Below, one piece after another: positions 1,026 to 40,285 of a stretch of DNA of 45,980 nucleotides. Each line of letters opens with the position of its first letter. Within the stretch, counting starts at the first letter, position 1. This DNA is from Actinomycetes bacterium (lineage in GTDB: Bacteria > Actinomycetota > Acidimicrobiia > Acidimicrobiales > Palsa-688): contig JAJZMF010000019.1 of the NCBI GenBank assembly GCA_021850325.1, positions 1 through 45,980 on the forward strand, written 5' to 3'. The position numbers and the translations under genes were made by a program. The notes beneath the pieces are model-generated. The model was given only the letters and a program-made list of their open reading frames with translations. It ran no database searches and was not told where the DNA came from.

Positions 1026-4000
1026 TTAGTCGCTCGTACCTCCCACTTGCGTTGCGCCGTCCCGCCTGCGAGCCACAACGGCGTATTCGCCCTGTGCCCA
1101 GCGATCTTCCGTCACGTCGCCGGCCCCCGCAGGGAAGAACACAAAGGCATCGCCGTACCCCGCAGACGCGCACAGTTGCAGTAGCACCTCAGGATAGAGC
1201 ATTGTCCGGTGGGTGGGATCCGTCCAGAAAGTCTTGAACGACTGCACCGGGTAGGGGTTCACTGTCTCCACCACCAGGGAACCGCCGAACTTAAGAACGC
1301 GCAGCGAACCCTTGAGGAGCTCCATTACCTGGTCCGCCTCCATGTGCTCCACGACCTGCGCACAGAACACGGCGCCGACTGTCTGCTCCTCGGCATTTCT
1401 TAAGTATTCGAAAATGTCGCAGCGCCGGACGTCATACCCTAGATTGGTGGCCCTGGTGACCATACTATCGTCCCTGTCAATTCCGAGAGCTTCTATGCCT
1501 GCCTCCCGCAACAAGCCGAGCATTTCGCCCCGCCCGCAACCGAGGTCGACGACGGGAGGGTGCGGCGTCAGCAACGGCAGGTATGGGCGAAATCGCTCCC
1601 GGATGAAGCCCTCAGGACCTCGGAAAACATCTTCGAAGCTAGCGTAGCCGACTTCGAGGGCGTTGGTGTTATAGCCGAGCACCGTCTTGCCATCAGGGGT
1701 CTTCATTTCGAACACAGCGGGATCGGCCATGTAAGGGGTGCTTCGGAGCTCCCGGCTGGTCCGCACGGCATCTTCTAGGAGCTCGCCATTTGCACCAGCT
1801 ATGCGCCACAAGGTATCGGCTCCCCTGGCTAAGCCGTTGAGCCCGACCTCGTGAACATCGAGCACTGCTTGGTGGCTATCGAGTTCGGCGCTAAGACGAT
1901 CGACTGCCTGAGACAATGCTGAGCGCTCGGCCGAGCCGATTCCGAGTTCGTCGCCGATCTCCCGCAGCCGCCTGTCACAGTCCAGCAAGTTAGTGCCAAT
2001 TTCGTCGACGTCCCGCCTCACGGACGTCAGGTTCTCCCGCAGCTGCAAGACCATGTCGTCGAGGCGGACTTCGACCGCCTCTACTGCCCGCGCCAGGTCG
2101 CCATGCACCTCACGGTCGTGGTCGGCGTGCGAACGCAGCGCCCGGGCAACTGCCCGCCGGTACAATAAGGCAGCTTGAGGATACCGGCTCGGCGCTCCCA
2201 GCCATCGGGGACGGGTCGCCAATTGCACGAGGTCCCCGGGCCGCTCAGGTGGAGGCCCGTCACTTTTCGGAACAGGGCGCCCTGGCCCCGCCATCTGCCC
2301 GTGGCTGCGGCACGACAGCTTAGCTCGAGCCTCTTTGTAGCGCTCGGCTACGAAACCCGCCCGTGCCATTACTCCGTACTTCGACAGCACCGCCTCACGG
2401 GCCCGCGCACCCACCTCTGAAGCCTCGGCGGGCCTCTCGTAGACCTGGCGCATCAGACTGGCGGCATGGTCCAGATCGGGCTCAGCCCACCGAGCACCAG
2501 CCCTGTACGGTTGGCAGCCAACCGGTACGGAGCCCGGTCGCCAGGACACCAGGTAGGACGTGTCGTCGTCCATGAAGTCGAGGTTGCCCGAATATGCAGT
2601 GGCGATTACTGGCTTGCCCATAGCCATCGCCTCAGCCATCGTCAAGCCGAAACCCTCGCTCCTGTGCAGCGACACATAGCAGTCCGACGCCTGCATCAGA
2701 GCGCGGTTCACGTGGTGCTCGAGATAGCCGTCCATGATCCTGATGTCTTCGCGCCCCGCTGCAGCGTCGAGAAGGCGGTTCATCGACGCCGGCTCCAGCG
2801 CGCTATTGAGGACCTTCATCACTAGGACCGGGCCTTCGTCCTCGCCGAAAGCCCGTTTGAAGGCCTCGATGAGCCCCAACGGGTTCTTGCGCTCGAAGAT
2901 GCTGAGCAGGTCGAAGTAGTAGAGGAAGGTGTAGCGGTCGGGGAGGTCGAAGTATGCTTTGGGCAGTCGCACCTCGTCGCCCGATGGTGCCCGCACGGGC
3001 AACGGGTCGAGGATCGGGAGCGGGAACGCGAAGACCGGCTTGTCGGTGGCCCTGGCGATGGCGTCGCGGACGAAAGAGCTTATCCCCCACACCTCATCCA
3101 CGTGATCGAAAGCGGGGCTGAAAGCCGAGGGGAACTCCTCGAGTTCCCAGGCCCACAACCCGATCGTGTAGTGACCGTCGAAGAAGTTCGCTCCCACCCG
3201 GCGTGCGAAGTTTGGCAACTCGTCGGCGTTGACGCAGACGAGGTTGACGTCGTAATCGTCTACCGTCGCCTCGAACGGGTGCGCCTGCCGGCTGACCGAG
3301 GACGTCTCCAGGTAGGTGCCCATCGGTAGGCCTGCTTCCTTCGCAGCTGCAATCGTAAGGCGACCCAGCTCGCCGACGCCCGATTCCGTGGTGAAGTAGC
3401 CAGCTACCCGCACACCCTGCTTGGGCGGCTGACGCTCGATGGCGGCCGACGGCGGCGGTGTAAGGCTGGGTGGCTCCGTCAAGAGGCGCGACTCCAAGCG
3501 CCCGAGCAGGCGGGCCATATTGATCCTCACCCGCTCGTCCCCGGTACCCGGCACCGGCACGGCCACAAGGCGACGCTCCAAGCGCCCGAGCGCCCTGTGG
3601 ACATTGAGCTGGGCAGTGCGTCCCCTGTCCGGGACTGGGGCCACCTCGGCAGCCTTATCGAGGCGGCGGACGGCACCAGCCAGGTTGAGCCGGACGGCCT
3701 CGTGCTCGGTCCCGGGCAGCGGTACAGCGCTCAAACGGCGTCGAGCCCTCCCGATCTGTCGGCCGGCTTCGTACCGCCATCTGCGACCATCTGGTGCCGC
3801 CTGTACCGTACCGAGCGCGCCTGGAAGCCGCCCCGCAGCCGTCTCGTGCGCCACCCAGGTGCAGAAGGCCCCGAAGTTTACGCCCTCGGGGTCGGGAAAG
3901 GCTTCTTGGAGATCGAGCCGTCCGGCATGGACTGCCAGGAGGTACCGGCCCAGTAGGCGCCGTGGGCTCTCTTCGGGTGGAGTGCCGAGCCACTCCACGA

Positions 4001-35750: not shown

Positions 35751-36368
35751 TCAGTGGTCCCCGGAGATGGCCGCCGCCAGGGCTCGGAACGCCCGGCCCC
35801 GGTGGGACAGGGCATGCTTGGCACCGGGCTCCGCCTCCTCCATCTCGGCAAAGGTCCGCCCGTCACCCTCGTCCGGCACGAACACAGGGTCGTAGCCGAA
35901 CCCGCCCCTCCCCCGCCTCCGGTGCGCCAGCCTGCCCTGCACGGCGCCCTCGGCTACGACCTCGTGGCCATCGGGCCAGCAGGCCACGGCCACGGTCACG
36001 AAGCGGGCAGCCCGGCGGTCGGGCTCATCGAGCCCTGAGAGCTCGTCCAGCACCTTGTCCACGTTGGCCTGCTCGTCAGGTGGCTCGCCGGCGTAGCGGG
36101 CAGAGCGCACGCCCGGGGCCCCGCCCAGTGCCTCGACCTCGAGGCCGGTGTCCTCGGCGATGGCGGGCCGGCCGGTGGCCTCCACCAGTGCCCGGGCCTT
36201 GAGCAACGCGTTGCCGAGCAGGGTCGCCTCGGTCTCCTCCACCTCGGGCACCCAACCCGGGCGTTCGGCGAGCTCGGCACCGATGCCGGCGGAGGAGAAG
36301 ATCTGCCGGATCTCCCGGGCCTTGTTGGGGTTGGTGGTGGCCAGCACGAAGCCGGCACCCGTCCTCAT
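35751..36368 (-). CDS. rdgB: Non-canonical purine NTP pyrophosphatase (RdgB/HAM1)
   Basis: A 205-residue house-cleaning enzyme that hydrolyses dITP, ITP and XTP to monophosphates and keeps them out of DNA and [15 protein letters not shown] at 9-20 binds the triphosphate, [26 protein letters not shown] at about 69-94 has the catalytic Asp, and [11 protein letters not shown] and [10 protein letters not shown] are the other family motifs. The start overlaps the rph stop as ATGA, so translation is coupled. The order rph-rdgB is shared with mycobacteria. Confidence 0.95.
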
Positions 36369-37153
36369 GCCCCCCGGCCACCCTCGCCGGCGGGGGCCCC
36401 GCGCCTGGGCCGGGCGGGCGGCGGCACCGCCACCACCGACCTCTGGGCGGCCAGCAGCTGGCCGATGCCGTGCTCGGCCAAGCCCAGCATGTGGTCGAGC
36501 TGGGCACGGCTGAAGGGCGCCCCCTCGGCGGTGCCCTGCACCTCCACCAGGCCGCCCGAGGCGGTCATCACCACGTTCATGTCCACCTCGGCCCCGGCGT
36601 CCTCGGCGTAGGCGAGGTCGAGCACGGGGGCTCCCCCCACGATGCCGACCGACACTGCGGCGCAGCCGTCACGCACCGGGTGGGAGCGCAGACGGCCGGA
36701 TGCCACCATCCGGGTGCAGGCATCGTGCAGGGCCACCCAGGCACCCACGATGCTCGCCGTCCTGGTGCCCCCGTCCGCCTGGAGCACGTCGCAGTCCAGG
36801 GTGACCGCCTGCTCGGCCAGTACGGCGAGGTCGGTCACGGCCCGCAAGCTGCGCCCGATGAGGCGCTGGATCTCCTGGGTTCGGCCGGACTGGCGCCCCC
36901 TCGCTGCCTCCCGGTCGACCCGCTCCGGGGAAGAGCCCGGGAGCATGGAGTACTCCGCCGTCACCCACCCCCGTCCGGACCCCTTGAGCCAGCGCGGCGG
37001 GTCCTCCGAGAACGACGCCGTGCAGAGCACGACGGTGCGGCCCATTCGGACCAGCACCGAACCGGACGCGAACTCGGTGAAGTCACGTTCGAGCTCCACC
37101 GGGCGCAGCTCGTCACCCTGACGCCCGTCGGGCCTGGCCCGCCCAGTGCTCAC
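36365..37153 (-). CDS. rph: Ribonuclease PH
   Basis: A 262-residue phosphorolytic 3'-5' exoribonuclease that trims tRNA 3' ends. [20 protein letters not shown] at the start, [36 protein letters not shown] and [20 protein letters not shown] contain the conserved phosphate- and RNA-binding residues. [19 protein letters not shown] holds the metal-binding Asp residues. I chose GTG 37153, which overlaps the previous stop as GTGA; GTG 37162 is an alternative. Confidence 0.95.
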
Positions 37154-37896
37154 ACCTGCCACGTCTTGCCCACCTCCGCAAGGTCCACGCGTTCGCCGAA
37201 CACGGCAACGGCGAGCCTACGGGCCTGCTCGCGGTCCACGGTAGGGCCCAGGTGGCTGAGCAACAGGCGCTCGGCGCCGGCCCGCAGAGCGGCCTCAGCC
37301 GCCTGCCGGGCGCTCAGGTGCTGCATGGCGCCCTCCTCCTCGGGAGGCAGCGAGGCCTCCACGACGGCGAGCGACGGGCCCGGCCCCAGGCTGGAGAGCT
37401 CCCAGCCCGTCCCCGTGTCCGCCGAGTACACCAGGGAACGGCCCATGGCGTCCACCCGGCAGGCCAGGGTCTCCACCGGGTGGTCCGTACGCGACCAACG
37501 GAAGCCGAAGGGCCCCAGCTCGGCGGTGCTGCCATCGGCCACGGTGCGCCAGTCGAAGGTGCCGTCGGGGCGCTCACCGGCCATCAGGGAGCGCAGGCCC
37601 TCGGGGGCGTAGACCGGCACGCCCCGGCGGTTGAAGAAGTACCGCATGGCCACGTAGAGGCCCTCCAGGTCGCTCCAGTGGTCCGGGTGGGCGTGGCTCA
37701 CCACCACTGCGTCCAGTTGCTCGAGGCCTACGTGCAGCTGAAGGTTGGCCATGGTGCCCGGCCCGGCGTCCAGCCAGACCGAACGGCCCCCGGCCTGCAG
37801 CAGGTAGCCGCTGCACGCACCGCCCGGCGCGGGGTAGCTCCCGTCGGTGCCGAGCACCGTGAGCGTGAACCCGTCGCCGCCCTTGCCTGTCGTCAT
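37150..37896 (-). CDS. Metallo-beta-lactamase-fold hydrolase, Rv1339-like phosphodiesterase candidate
   Basis: A 248-residue metal-dependent hydrolase. [10 protein letters not shown] at 67-76 is the HxHxDH metal site (His68, His70, Asp72, His73). [11 protein letters not shown] has a further metal ligand and LLLSHLGP the last His. In Mycobacterium the gene next to rph (Rv1339) is an atypical class II cyclic-nucleotide phosphodiesterase with the same fold, and gene order agrees here. A cAMP phosphodiesterase or a tRNase Z relative are both possible. It ends overlapping rph. Confidence 0.8.
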
Positions 37897-38034: not shown

Positions 38035-38982
38035 TCAGAAGTAGAGCTCGTGCTTCGCCCGCTCGACGACCTCGTCCAGGTCGCCGGTCCACACATCGGT
38101 CGAGAGGTACTTCCAGCCACCGTCGGGTGAGACGGTGACGATCGTCCCCTCGTCGATCTCAGAGGCGCAGCGGGCGACGCCCGCCATGGCGGCCCCGGTC
38201 GAGATCCCGGCGAAGATGCCGACATCAGCGAGCCGGCGCGCCCACTCGATGCTCTCCCGGGGGCCCACCACCCGGCTGCGGTCGAGGAGGGCATAGCCGT
38301 CGTTGTCGGTGAACACCGGCGGGATGAAACCCTCGTCCAGGCTCTTGAGGCCCTCCACGGTCTCCCCGGCGGGCGGCTGCACAGCCCAGATGGACACGGC
38401 TGGGTTGCACTGTTTGAGGAAGCTGCCCACCCCGATGATGGTGCCTGCAGTACCCAGGCCGGCCACGAAGTGGGTCACCTCCGGGCAGTCCCGCCATATC
38501 TCGGGGCCGGTCCCCTCGAAGTGGGCCTTGGGGTTGGCCGGGTTTCCGTACTGGAACGAGAACCACCAGTCCGGGTGCTCGGCCGCCAGGGCCTGGGCCC
38601 GGCGCATGGCGCCGTTGGAGCCCTCTGCCGCGGGCGAGGCGACGATCTCGGCGCCGAAGGCCCGCAGGAGCTTGACCCGCTCGATCGAGACGTTCTCGGG
38701 CACCACGGTGGTGAACGGGTACCCCTTGACCCGGGCGATCATCGCCAGCCCGGCCGCCGTGTTGCCGCTTGACGACTCGAGGATCCGCTGGCCCGGCGCG
38801 AGGCTGCCGTCCTTCTCGGCATCCTCGATCATGGCCTTGGCCGCCCGGTCCTTGACCGAGCCGGCGGGGTTGAGGCCCTCGAGCTTGATCAGCACCCTCA
38901 CCCGCGGGTTGGGGCTCAGCTCGCTTATGTCGACCAGGGGCGTGTTGCCGATGGTCTCCAGGACGCTGTCGAAGCGGGCCAC
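38035..38982 (-). CDS. cysM: Cysteine synthase CysM, CysO-thiocarboxylate dependent type
   Basis: A 315-residue PLP enzyme of the O-acetylserine/O-phosphoserine sulfhydrylase fold. The start ARFDSVLETIGNTPLV matches the mycobacterial CysM start. NPAGSVKDRAA holds the PLP lysine (Lys44), ESSSGNTAAG the substrate loop, and GLGTAGTIIG the phosphate-binding loop. In mycobacteria CysM uses O-phosphoserine and sulfur from CysO thiocarboxylate; the adjacent cysO and mec genes suggest the same here. The position I align to mycobacterial Arg220, which contacts the phosphate, is Lys213. The start is GTG 38982; TTG 38988 would overlap the cysO stop as TTGA. Confidence 0.92.
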   Translation of the reverse strand: MARFDSVLETIGNTPLVDISELSPNPRVRVLIKLEGLNPAGSVKDRAAKAMIEDAEKDGSLAPGQRILESSSGNTAAGLAMIARVKGYPFTTVVPENVSIERVKLLRAFGAEIVASPAAEGSNGAMRRAQALAAEHPDWWFSFQYGNPANPKAHFEGTGPEIWRDCPEVTHFVAGLGTAGTIIGVGSFLKQCNPAVSIWAVQPPAGETVEGLKSLDEGFIPPVFTDNDGYALLDRSRVVGPRESIEWARRLADVGIFAGISTGAAMAGVARCASEIDEGTIVTVSPDGGWKYLSTDVWTGDLDEVVERAKHELYF

Positions 38983-38984
38983 CC

Positions 38985-39278
38985 TCAACCCGCCACAGCC
39001 CCGCCGGCCACCGCCGGCATCAGCGTCACCGTGTCCCCGTCGCCCACCTTGGCCTCGAGGCGCCCGAGGTAGCGCACGTCGTCGTCGTTGAGGAAGACGT
39101 TGAGGTGCCGGTGCATCTCGCCCTCGGTGTTGAACAGCGAGCCCTGCAGGCCCGGGTACTGGCGGACCAGGTCGTCGAACACCTCTCGCAGGGTGCCGCC
39201 GGCGGCCTTGACCACCGGCTCGCCGCCCGCCAGCGGACGCAGGATGTTGGGCAAGCGCACTTCGACAGCCACGGGCAT
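38985..39278 (-). CDS. cysO: Sulfur-carrier protein CysO (ThiS/MoaD fold) with a C-terminal extension after GG
   Basis: A 97-residue ubiquitin-like sulfur carrier. It starts PVAVEVRLPNILRPLAGGE and ends TLMPAVAGGAVAG. In Mycobacterium the protein ends at the GG, whose carboxylate is turned into a thiocarboxylate and gives sulfur to CysM. Here four residues (AVAG) follow the GG at 92-93, so the chain must be trimmed first. The JAMM protease Mec, encoded 72 bases upstream, is the natural candidate. I chose ATG 39278; a GTG seven codons upstream is also in frame. Confidence 0.92.
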   Translation of the reverse strand: MPVAVEVRLPNILRPLAGGEPVVKAAGGTLREVFDDLVRQYPGLQGSLFNTEGEMHRHLNVFLNDDDVRYLGRLEAKVGDGDTVTLMPAVAGGAVAG

Positions 39279-39350
39279 CTCCCTACTCGGTGGTTCCACG
39301 GTCCACGCCGGTCACGGACGGGCGCCGGCACCCAAACCTGACTCAGCTCG

Positions 39351-39782
39351 TCACGATTCTACGGCACCACCCGGCAAAGTCGCGAGGAGCACCGGCTCTT
39401 CGGTCACAGCCCCGTCCACGATGCGGTAGCTGCGCAGGACCGGTTCGGTATCGCTTAGAGACACAAGCACGTAGTGCCACCCAGGGTCCGGGGCCTGGGC
39501 GATGTCGGTGGGCGACGGGTAGGCCGGGGTGTGGGTGTGGGAGTGCCAAACCCCGACGACGCTGAGCCCGGCCGCCTCGGCGGCACGGTCCGCTCGCAGC
39601 AGGTCACGCGGCTCGACCGTGTACACACGGGCTGACCGGGCAGCATTGGCCGTCGGGTAGACCTCCAGCACCTGGGTGCCGGCACCCTCCTGCCCGGCCA
39701 GCAGGCCGCACGCCTCCATAGGCAAGCCGTCCAGGCAGTGGGCGACCATCACGTCCCAGGAACGCTGAGTGAGCACGAGCAC
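39351..39782 (-). CDS. mec: JAMM/MPN+ metalloprotease Mec
   Basis: A 143-residue zinc peptidase. GLPMEACGLLAG supplies the catalytic Glu, and VWHSHTHTPAYPSPTD fits the JAMM pattern H-S-H-x7-S-x2-D exactly. In Mycobacterium Mec releases cysteine from the CysO-cysteine adduct; here it may also remove the CysO tail. The start is GTG 39782, or GTG 39776. It is divergent from smpB with 26 bases between, so promoter elements must overlap the coding sequences. Confidence 0.92.
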   Translation of the reverse strand: MLVLTQRSWDVMVAHCLDGLPMEACGLLAGQEGAGTQVLEVYPTANAARSARVYTVEPRDLLRADRAAEAAGLSVVGVWHSHTHTPAYPSPTDIAQAPDPGWHYVLVSLSDTEPVLRSYRIVDGAVTEEPVLLATLPGGAVES

Positions 39783-39808: not shown

Positions 39809-40285
39809 ATGGCCGCTAAGAAGGACTATTCGGGGGGCCTGGTGGCCCAGAACCGCCGGGCGCGCCACGACTACGACATCGTCGCCACCTATGAGGCCGG
39901 CATCGTGCTCGTGGGCGCCGAGGTCAAGTCCTTCCGGGAGGGCCGGGTTCAGCTGCGCGACTCGTACGCCCGGGCCCAGGACGGCGAGGTCTGGCTGCAC
40001 GGCATGCACGTGTCGCCGTACGGCTACGCCACGGCCTTCGGCATGTTCGACCCCGACCGCTCTCGCAAGCTCCTCCTGCACCGGCGGGAGATCGACGATC
40101 TTGCCCGCCAGACGAGACAGGGCCCGCTAACCCTGGTCCCGCTGTCGGTCTACTTCAAGGACGGCCGGGCCAAGGTCGAGCTGGCGCTGGCGCGCGGGCG
40201 GCGCGAGTACGACAAGCGCCGGGCCATCGCCGACCGGGAGGCCCAACTGGAGGCCAAGCGGGCCATGGGGACGAGGCGCCACTGA
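39809..40285 (+). CDS. smpB: SsrA-binding protein SmpB
   Basis: A 158-residue OB-fold protein that binds tmRNA and fills the decoding centre of stalled ribosomes. NRRARHDYDIVATYEAGIVL, VGAEVKSFREGRVQLRDSYA and LLLHRREIDDLARQT are family motifs. The C-terminal tail is basic (RREYDKRRAIADREAQ, then KRAMGTRRH) and becomes helical in the mRNA channel. Its RNA partner ssrA is about 1.6 kb downstream on the same strand. Confidence 0.97.
   Translation: MAAKKDYSGGLVAQNRRARHDYDIVATYEAGIVLVGAEVKSFREGRVQLRDSYARAQDGEVWLHGMHVSPYGYATAFGMFDPDRSRKLLLHRREIDDLARQTRQGPLTLVPLSVYFKDGRAKVELALARGRREYDKRRAIADREAQLEAKRAMGTRRH

What the first reader, a model, noticed from the sequence alone, without database searches (positions are those of the whole stretch)
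38985..39782. CysO carries four residues after its GG, implying activation by Mec
The sulfur carrier ends PAVAGG-AVAG. The mycobacterial protein ends at GG and can be activated directly. Here the GG is blocked until the tail is cut. The JAMM protease Mec next door has a complete H-S-H-x7-S-x2-D motif and would be the obvious enzyme, giving Mec two roles: activation of CysO and release of cysteine from it.
Basis: partly seen in the sequence, partly recalled or inferred. Interest (0 to 1): 0.55.

Follow-up and report, generated by a model that had tools for sequence, protein, structure and literature searches.

The report
Capped sulfur carrier beside its protease
A small protein that carries sulfur for making cysteine is made with a few extra amino acids that must be cut off before it can work, most likely by the protease encoded next to it, an arrangement already known in a few bacteria that proves common and quickly changing across actinobacteria.

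Summary
In detail: the window's CysO ends PAVAGG-AVAG, between mec and cysM. A capped sulfur carrier beside a JAMM protease is a known kind (QbsE/QbsD; Streptomyces PtmS2/PtmS1, where deleting the protease abolishes thioacid products, PMC6006322).

What the tools add. In the window's genome three of four carriers are capped, with one Prok-JAB protease (Mec) and one E1 found. In well-assembled genomes without a Prok-JAB match, 1 of 33 carriers is capped. The first cap residue is Ala, Ser or Cys in 87 of 119 caps, against 80 of 302 later cap residues.

Cleavage itself was not measured. Caps look like translated spacer tolerated because Mec trims it, not a designed switch. New member of a known kind, with a new comparative pattern.

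The parts
38985..39278 (-). cysO, sulfur carrier of the ThiS/MoaD fold; ATG start at 39278 (alternative GTG at 39299)
   Evidence: Pfam ThiS 3.4e-12; PDB relatives 4n6e_B and 3dwg_C
39000..39005 (-). Gly-Gly codons, the carboxylate to be adenylated and thiolated
38988..38999 (-). cap AVAG after GG, followed by TGA at 38985-38987
39351..39782 (-). mec, JAMM/Prok-JAB metalloprotease; the only Prok-JAB match found in the genome
39504..39545 (-). Mec metal-binding motif H-S-H-x7-S-x2-D (residues 80-93); Glu23 lies N-terminal
   Evidence: sequence read
38035..38982 (-). cysM, cysteine synthase; GTG start at 38982, 2 nt after the cysO stop, fits the MARY/F N-terminus of relatives; a TTG at 38988 would overlap cysO

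Best explanation
CysO is translated with a four-residue cap (AVAG) that blocks its Gly-Gly C-terminus. Mec, encoded just upstream in the same cluster, hydrolyses the amide after GG. The freed carboxylate is adenylated and thiolated by the single rhodanese-fused MoeB/MoeZ-type E1; CysM uses the thiocarboxylate to build cysteine on it; Mec cuts after GG again to release cysteine. Initial uncapping and product release are thus one reaction at one site. The cap itself is probably a by-product: the stop codon drifts within the short spacer before cysM, sometimes overlapping its start, and is tolerated because Mec trims whatever follows GG provided the first residue suits it (mostly Ala, Ser, Cys). 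Shown here: the cap, the catalytic motif, the single protease and E1 found in the genome, the turnover of caps, the bias of the first cap residue. Inferred: the cleavage.
For: (1) G000 has four ThiS-family carriers: GG-AVAG, GG-Q, GG-AR and one ending at GG; one Prok-JAB match, Mec; one ThiF-family E1, rhodanese-fused. (2) CysO with Mec on the same strand in the locus: 46 GG, 65 capped, 1 fused to CysM, n=112; at least 17 changes of state, 12 forced by starred branches, 19 on a FastTree tree, shuffled mean about 36. A named-genome scan: 52 capped of the 80 loci kept, Mec in 79. (3) Genomes at least 90% complete without a Prok-JAB match: 1 blocked of 33 carriers in 18 genomes; genomes with one (any completeness): 124 of 260 in 151 genomes. 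In 36 genomes holding both a Mec-locus CysO and another PAVAGG carrier, only the former is blocked in 14, only the latter in 3, both in 5, neither in 14. (4) First cap residue A/S/C 87 of 119 against 80 of 302 later; Pro 0 of 119 against 27 of 302; Gly 4 of 119 against 58 of 302; first codon after the stop in uncapped genes A/S/C 26 of 92. (5) CysO ending GG-C, in four Modestobacter, one Geodermatophilus and two of four Blastococcus loci, has the sequence of the CysO-cysteine adduct that Mec hydrolyses (PMC3227635 passage). (6) A CysO-CysM single ORF in G081, overlapping mec, with no in-frame start codon between GG and the CysM core. (7) Overlap with the cysM start in 10 of 35 capped, 0 of 25 uncapped genes. 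(8) Precedent: deletion of the JAMM gene ptmS1 abolishes thioacid production; a JAMM cuts MoaD-MoaE and is needed for its activation in Deinococcus.
Against: No cleavage was measured, here or, in the passages I saw, for a CysO cap. G000 is a 95% complete draft, so a second JAMM could be missing. Two exceptions: G008 (96% complete, no Prok-JAB match) has a MoaD-like GG-YG, and G070 (94%) has a CysO-like GG-AG with only a marginal JAB match. Four genomes under 90% complete without a JAB match (G011, G020, G025, G041) hold 7 capped of 14 carriers; I left them out as probably incomplete. The JAB+ and JAB- sets differ in lineage, completeness and in which carriers were fetched, so the Fisher p values overstate independence. 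First-residue bias could partly reflect selection at DNA level near the cysM start. ThiS-like carriers are seldom blocked even where a JAMM exists (4 of 25), so a JAMM does not make every carrier drift.
Confidence: 0.82

Rival explanations
1. The cap is removed by a general C-terminal protease or carboxypeptidase, and Mec only releases cysteine.
For: Caps vary in length and letters. Two JAB-poor genomes keep a capped carrier. MoaX of M. tuberculosis is cut after GG by a protease unidentified in the 2015 paper (PMC4326299 passages).
Against: Caps are nearly absent from well-assembled genomes without a Prok-JAB match (1 of 33); the first cap residue is constrained; loss of the JAMM PtmS1 abolishes products attributed to capped carriers.
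Confidence: 0.1
2. The cap is a deliberate pro-peptide: CysO stays off until Mec is made, a regulated switch of cysteine synthesis.
For: Mec and CysO lie in one cluster, and removal would be needed once per CysO molecule (inference).
Against: Presence, length and sequence of caps turn over within a family, with no conserved sequence beyond the first residue; overlap of stop and start goes with caps. Mec is also needed at the end of every cycle, so gating adds little (inference).
Confidence: 0.08
3. The tail is a sequencing or assembly error.
For: The window is a contig of a draft genome.
Against: Same-genus relatives are capped (GG-AD) at the same site; caps occur in named isolates such as Frankia, Actinoplanes and Modestobacter.
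Confidence: 0.02
4. The tail stays on and the E1 activates CysO by another route, or this CysO is no longer a sulfur carrier.
For: None found.
Against: GG and core residues are invariant in an alignment of eight CysO proteins; cysM and mec are intact; the thiocarboxylate forms at the C-terminal Gly (PMC3227635 passages).
Confidence: 0.03

Closest known systems
CysO-CysM-Mec cysteine pathway of Mycobacterium tuberculosis (Rv1334-Rv1336)
   Same: Cluster mec-cysO-cysM; CysO 80 bits to 3dwg_C, CysM 284 bits to 3dki_A; the genes further downstream also match the mycobacterial order as I recall it.
   Different: Mycobacterial CysO ends at GG; here AVAG follows. The residue aligned with Arg220 of MtCysM (number recalled) is Lys. 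The E1 here has its rhodanese domain at the N-terminus; mycobacterial MoeZR has it at the C-terminus.
PtmS2/PtmS1 of Streptomyces platensis (capped carrier GG-MV beside a JAMM; PtmS3 GG-C)
   Same: Capped carrier and JAMM genes adjacent; deletion of ptmS1, but not of ptmS2 alone, abolishes thioacid products (PMC6006322 passages). Family f55, which I take for streptomycetes from genome size, shows GG-MA, GG-MS and GG-C.
   Different: There the read-out is a natural product; here the neighbour is cysM and the cap is AVAG.
QbsE/QbsD (thioquinolobactin), PdtH/PdtG, HcyS/HcyD
   Same: JAMM exposes GG of a capped carrier (QbsD named so in PMC6006322; PdtH and JAB PdtG in one operon in PMC1779556; HcyS/HcyD recalled).
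   Different: Dedicated siderophore or methionine clusters (the latter recalled); Godert 2007 is not held and was not read.
MoaD-MoaE fusions cut by JAMM (Deinococcus DRJAMM; HvJAMM1 on SAMP fusions)
   Same: Cleavage after the ubiquitin-like domain frees the carrier (PMC8832034 passages).
   Different: Full-length fusions rather than short caps; the G081 CysO-CysM ORF is the matching extreme.

Membership tests
CysO/Mec/CysM cysteine pathway | ThiS-fold CysO, JAMM Mec and cysteine synthase CysM encoded together | tested here: met
CysO/Mec/CysM cysteine pathway | CysM uses O-phosphoserine and CysO thiocarboxylate | not testable with these tools
   best PDB match is MtCysM; the residue aligned with Arg220 is Lys
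CysO/Mec/CysM cysteine pathway | MoeZ-type rhodanese-fused E1 in the genome | tested here: inconclusive
   one ThiF-family gene, rhodanese domain N-terminal to ThiF; best NCBIfam model is MoeB PRK08762 (568 bits, cut-off 449), MoeZ PRK07878 is below its cut-off (369 against 647)
Capped sulfur carrier with JAMM protease (QbsE/QbsD, PtmS2/PtmS1 kind) | residues after Gly-Gly | tested here: met
   AVAG
Capped sulfur carrier with JAMM protease (QbsE/QbsD, PtmS2/PtmS1 kind) | JAMM with Glu and HxHx7SxxD beside the carrier | tested here: met
   E-x-C-G plus H(S/T)Hx7SxxD in 99 of 112 relatives; of the other 13, 11 keep H(S/T)Hx7SxxD, one has HCH, and G003 (a partial gene) lacks it
Capped sulfur carrier with JAMM protease (QbsE/QbsD, PtmS2/PtmS1 kind) | protease shown to remove the cap | not testable with these tools
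   needs an assay
Archaeal desampylase (NF041370) | score over the curated cut-off | tested here: not met
   78.7 against 130 bits
SAMP1 (NF041918) | score over the curated cut-off | tested here: not met
   56.8 against 60 bits

The most novel reading that the evidence does not exclude
In many actinobacteria Mec is a shared maturation protease for several sulfur carriers at once (cysteine, tRNA thiolation, molybdopterin, a carrier beside threonine synthase), and this releases the stop codon of those genes from selection: caps come and go, drift into overlap with the next gene, and at the extreme become CysO-CysM or MoaD-MoaE polyproteins. Carriers encoded as GG-C are translated directly as the pathway intermediate CysO-cysteine, so maturation is literally one turn of the cysteine-releasing reaction.
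Probability: 0.42. Interest if true: 0.6.

Novelty: new member of a known kind. Interest (0 to 1): 0.42.

Why it matters
It shows that the mycobacterial GG-ended CysO is only one state of a fast-changing trait, offers a reason why Mec is so often beside CysO, and predicts that losing Mec would disable every capped carrier in a genome, not cysteine synthesis alone. It also warns that annotated C-termini of sulfur carriers are often not the mature ones, and gives a simple first-residue rule (Ala, Ser, Cys) that can be tested with peptides.

Tried and rejected
Sequencing error: rejected (same-genus GG-AD; named isolates). 'Only this organism': rejected. Cap as a conserved pro-peptide: rejected on its turnover. 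Cap present only because of overlap with cysM: only part of the story, since 25 of 35 capped genes with a called start do not overlap. Caps confined to Mec-linked carriers: rejected; other carriers are capped too (TtuB-like 12 of 12 read). CysO-CysM fusion as a conserved architecture: not supported; among the listed matches of 396 genomes only G081 has a full-length match without a stop (the listing is cut), and its two family members held here keep separate genes; in G095, where the search printed one long open frame for both, the DNA has an in-frame TAA between them. Papers: Sasaki 2014 and Godert 2007 not held. Passages of PMC4745020 gave nothing useful. Searches that could have shown prior reports of caps on CysO; among the papers I opened, only PMC6006322 described capped carriers, and it does not use the name CysO (0 occurrences).

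Rows dropped before counts: three PF02597 hits without GG at the profile end, two of G234 and one of G101; the second CysO-like gene of G002 (L302, GG-Q), dropped by the script because its hit ran through the stop codon; one open-ended ORF (G216). From the JAB comparison I left out the marginal genomes G003 and G070 and the under-90% JAB-negative genomes G011, G020, G025 and G041; the JAB-positive side was not filtered by completeness. Not all matches were read: 59 came as loci, I fetched 120 more by place, and the listing was cut. For the carrier survey I fetched 80 more by place; those I chose from the list. Of the genomes without a JAB match, 36 were not named in the listing; I took four (G141, G228, G234, G235) as negative because they are missing from its positive rows. 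Carrier classes (CysO-like, MoaD-like, ThiS-like, TtuB-like) were set by Mec in the locus, by the CysO profile and by short patterns before GG, not by a tree.

Full report
What is there. On the minus strand of the window lie mec (39782-39351), cysO (39278-38985) and cysM (38982-38035), read from the sequence and confirmed by Pfam (Prok-JAB, ThiS, PALP). CysO ends PAVAGG-AVAG. M. tuberculosis CysO (PDB 3dwg_C) and the ThiS/MoaD-family chain 4n6e_B align to their last residue at GG. Mec keeps Glu23 and HSHx7SxxD.

Relatives. In the window's own family, CysO in a locus with Mec ends as GG, GG-A, GG-AD, GG-AL, GG-AS, GG-S or GG-AVAG; G020 has GG-AVGGAG at a contig edge, with no Mec seen. Among the fetched loci, a CysO profile matched ORFs in 181 of 183 loci. 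After removing duplicates, 112 CysO genes have Mec on the same strand in the locus: 46 end at GG, 65 carry a cap, one is fused to CysM. Caps are 1-41 residues, 45 of 65 being one or two. On a CysO+Mec tree of 112 rows the state changes at least 17 times, 12 forced by starred branches; shuffled labels need about 36; a FastTree tree gives 19. A scan of named genomes kept its best 80 of 573 loci: 52 capped, 28 at GG, Mec in 79. Some of those records look like the same organisms as in the first set (equal contig lengths), so the two are not independent. Capped isolates include Frankia, Parafrankia, Actinoplanes, Micromonospora, Saccharopolyspora, Nocardioides, Nocardiopsis and Streptomyces; four Modestobacter, one Geodermatophilus and two of four Blastococcus loci encode GG-C.

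One protease and one E1 found, several capped carriers. G000, a 95% complete draft, has four ThiS-family carriers: GG-AVAG (window), GG-Q 3' of threonine synthase (L003), GG-AR 5' of a TtuA-like tRNA thiolase (L004), and a MoaD-like protein ending at GG. It has a single Prok-JAB match, Mec, and a single ThiF-family E1, fused to an N-terminal rhodanese domain. If a JAMM uncaps them, Mec has to serve three.

Association with the protease. In genomes at least 90% complete without a Prok-JAB match, 33 carriers were read in 18 genomes and one was capped (G008, GG-YG). In genomes with Prok-JAB, of any completeness, 124 of 260 carriers in 151 genomes are capped or fused. For MoaD-like carriers alone: 19 of 32 against 1 of 16. 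Among 20 genomes of the window's order searched with the whole ThiS family (88 matches, 85 carriers read), every one has at least one blocked carrier: CysO 11 of 20, MoaD-like 9 of 18, TtuB-like 10 of 10, other CysO-like 6 of 23, ThiS-like 2 of 13. In 36 genomes with both a Mec-locus CysO and another PAVAGG carrier, only the first is blocked in 14, only the other in 3, both in 5, neither in 14. The two sides of the JAB comparison differ in lineage and sampling, so these are indications, not clean statistics. Exceptions are G008 and G070; four incomplete genomes without a JAB match hold 7 capped of 14 carriers and were set aside.

How the cap arises. For 65 of 112 loci a CysM anchor lies within 400 nt. 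The distance from GG to that anchor is nearly the same in uncapped and capped genes (median 43 and 48 nt; the small difference has p = 0.03), so most caps are carved from the same short spacer. The cysO stop overlaps the cysM start in 10 of 35 capped and 0 of 25 uncapped genes with a called start. The extreme is G081, where one 404-aa ORF reads ...LPAVAGG-AAHDSILDAIGNTPVV..., ThiS plus PALP, overlapping mec; the DNA has no ATG, GTG or TTG in frame between GG and the CysM core. It is a single case in a draft genome: among the listed matches of 396 genomes no other full-length match lacks a stop.

A protease-like signature. The first residue after GG is Ala, Ser or Cys in 87 of 119 caps (44 of 65 in Mec-locus CysO), Pro in none, Gly in 4; later cap residues are Ala, Ser or Cys in 80 of 302, Pro in 27, Gly in 58. 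Counting each family-class-residue once leaves 55 of 79. The first codon after the stop in uncapped genes gives 26 of 92. Fusions start with Ala in 10 of 14. Ala and Ser resemble cysteine, the residue that follows GG in the CysO-cysteine adduct which Mec hydrolyses (stated in PMC3227635, passage seen). CysO encoded as GG-C has the sequence of that adduct, so for those organisms uncapping would be Mec's known reaction; that the adduct is an amide after an S-to-N shift is recalled, not read here.

What is in print. Dong et al. 2018 (PMC6006322, passages) describe capped carriers PtmS2 (GG-MV) and PtmS3 (GG-C), the JAMM gene ptmS1 beside ptmS2, loss of thioacid products on deleting ptmS1 but not ptmS2, and QbsD as the precedent. 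Iyer et al. 2006 (PMC1779556, passages) suggested that JAB proteins may cut ThiS/MoaD fusions and listed ThiS-JAB-cysteine synthase operons. A JAMM cuts MoaD-MoaE and is needed for its activation in Deinococcus (PMC8832034, passages). MoaX of M. tuberculosis is cut between Gly82 and Ser83 by a then-unknown protease (PMC4326299, passages). I found no report of the phylum-wide turnover or of the first-residue rule in my searches, which cover open-licence papers only.

Verdict. The cap is best seen as tolerated translated spacer; the interesting and untested extension is Mec as the common maturation protease of several sulfur carriers.

Noticed in passing
L319 574-1788 (-), with mec at 1778-2188 (-): Natural single-ORF CysO-CysM fusion in one draft genome of the phylum, directly after mec.
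   Followed up: yes
L004 1674-2609 (+) and the carrier just before it: TtuB-like carrier capped GG-AR before a TtuA-like gene; carriers of this class (VISGG or VVSGG) are capped in 12 of 12 genes read.
   Followed up: partly
L003 36-1418 (+) and the carrier ending GG-Q: A second CysO-like carrier sits just after threonine synthase in this genome; its role is unknown.
   Followed up: partly
L264, L288, L328, L330, L331: MoaD-like carriers (PPVSGG) run in frame into a hydrophobic, membrane-like downstream sequence in five genomes of the window's class, all with a JAB match.
   Followed up: no
L332, L352: ThiS-like carriers running in frame past GG into a ThiG-like sequence (identity recalled), in two genomes with a JAB match.
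   Followed up: no
L143, L151, L155-L158, L161, L163 (family f48): All eight CysO genes read with Mec from this family are capped, seven of the caps containing Cys.
   Followed up: no
window 39809-40285 (+): smpB lies head-to-head with mec; PMC1779556 also notes an SmpB association of ubiquitin-like genes (passage).
   Followed up: no
window 35751-37896 (-): Downstream of cysM lie an MBL-fold gene, an RNase PH-like and an RdgB-like gene (the last two named from recall), the order I recall after cysM in M. tuberculosis.
   Followed up: no
window 38035-38982 (-): CysM Lys215 (numbered from the TTG) aligns with the Arg that I recall as Arg220 of MtCysM, an O-phosphoserine-binding residue; the G081 fusion seems to have Arg there (read by eye).
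   Followed up: no
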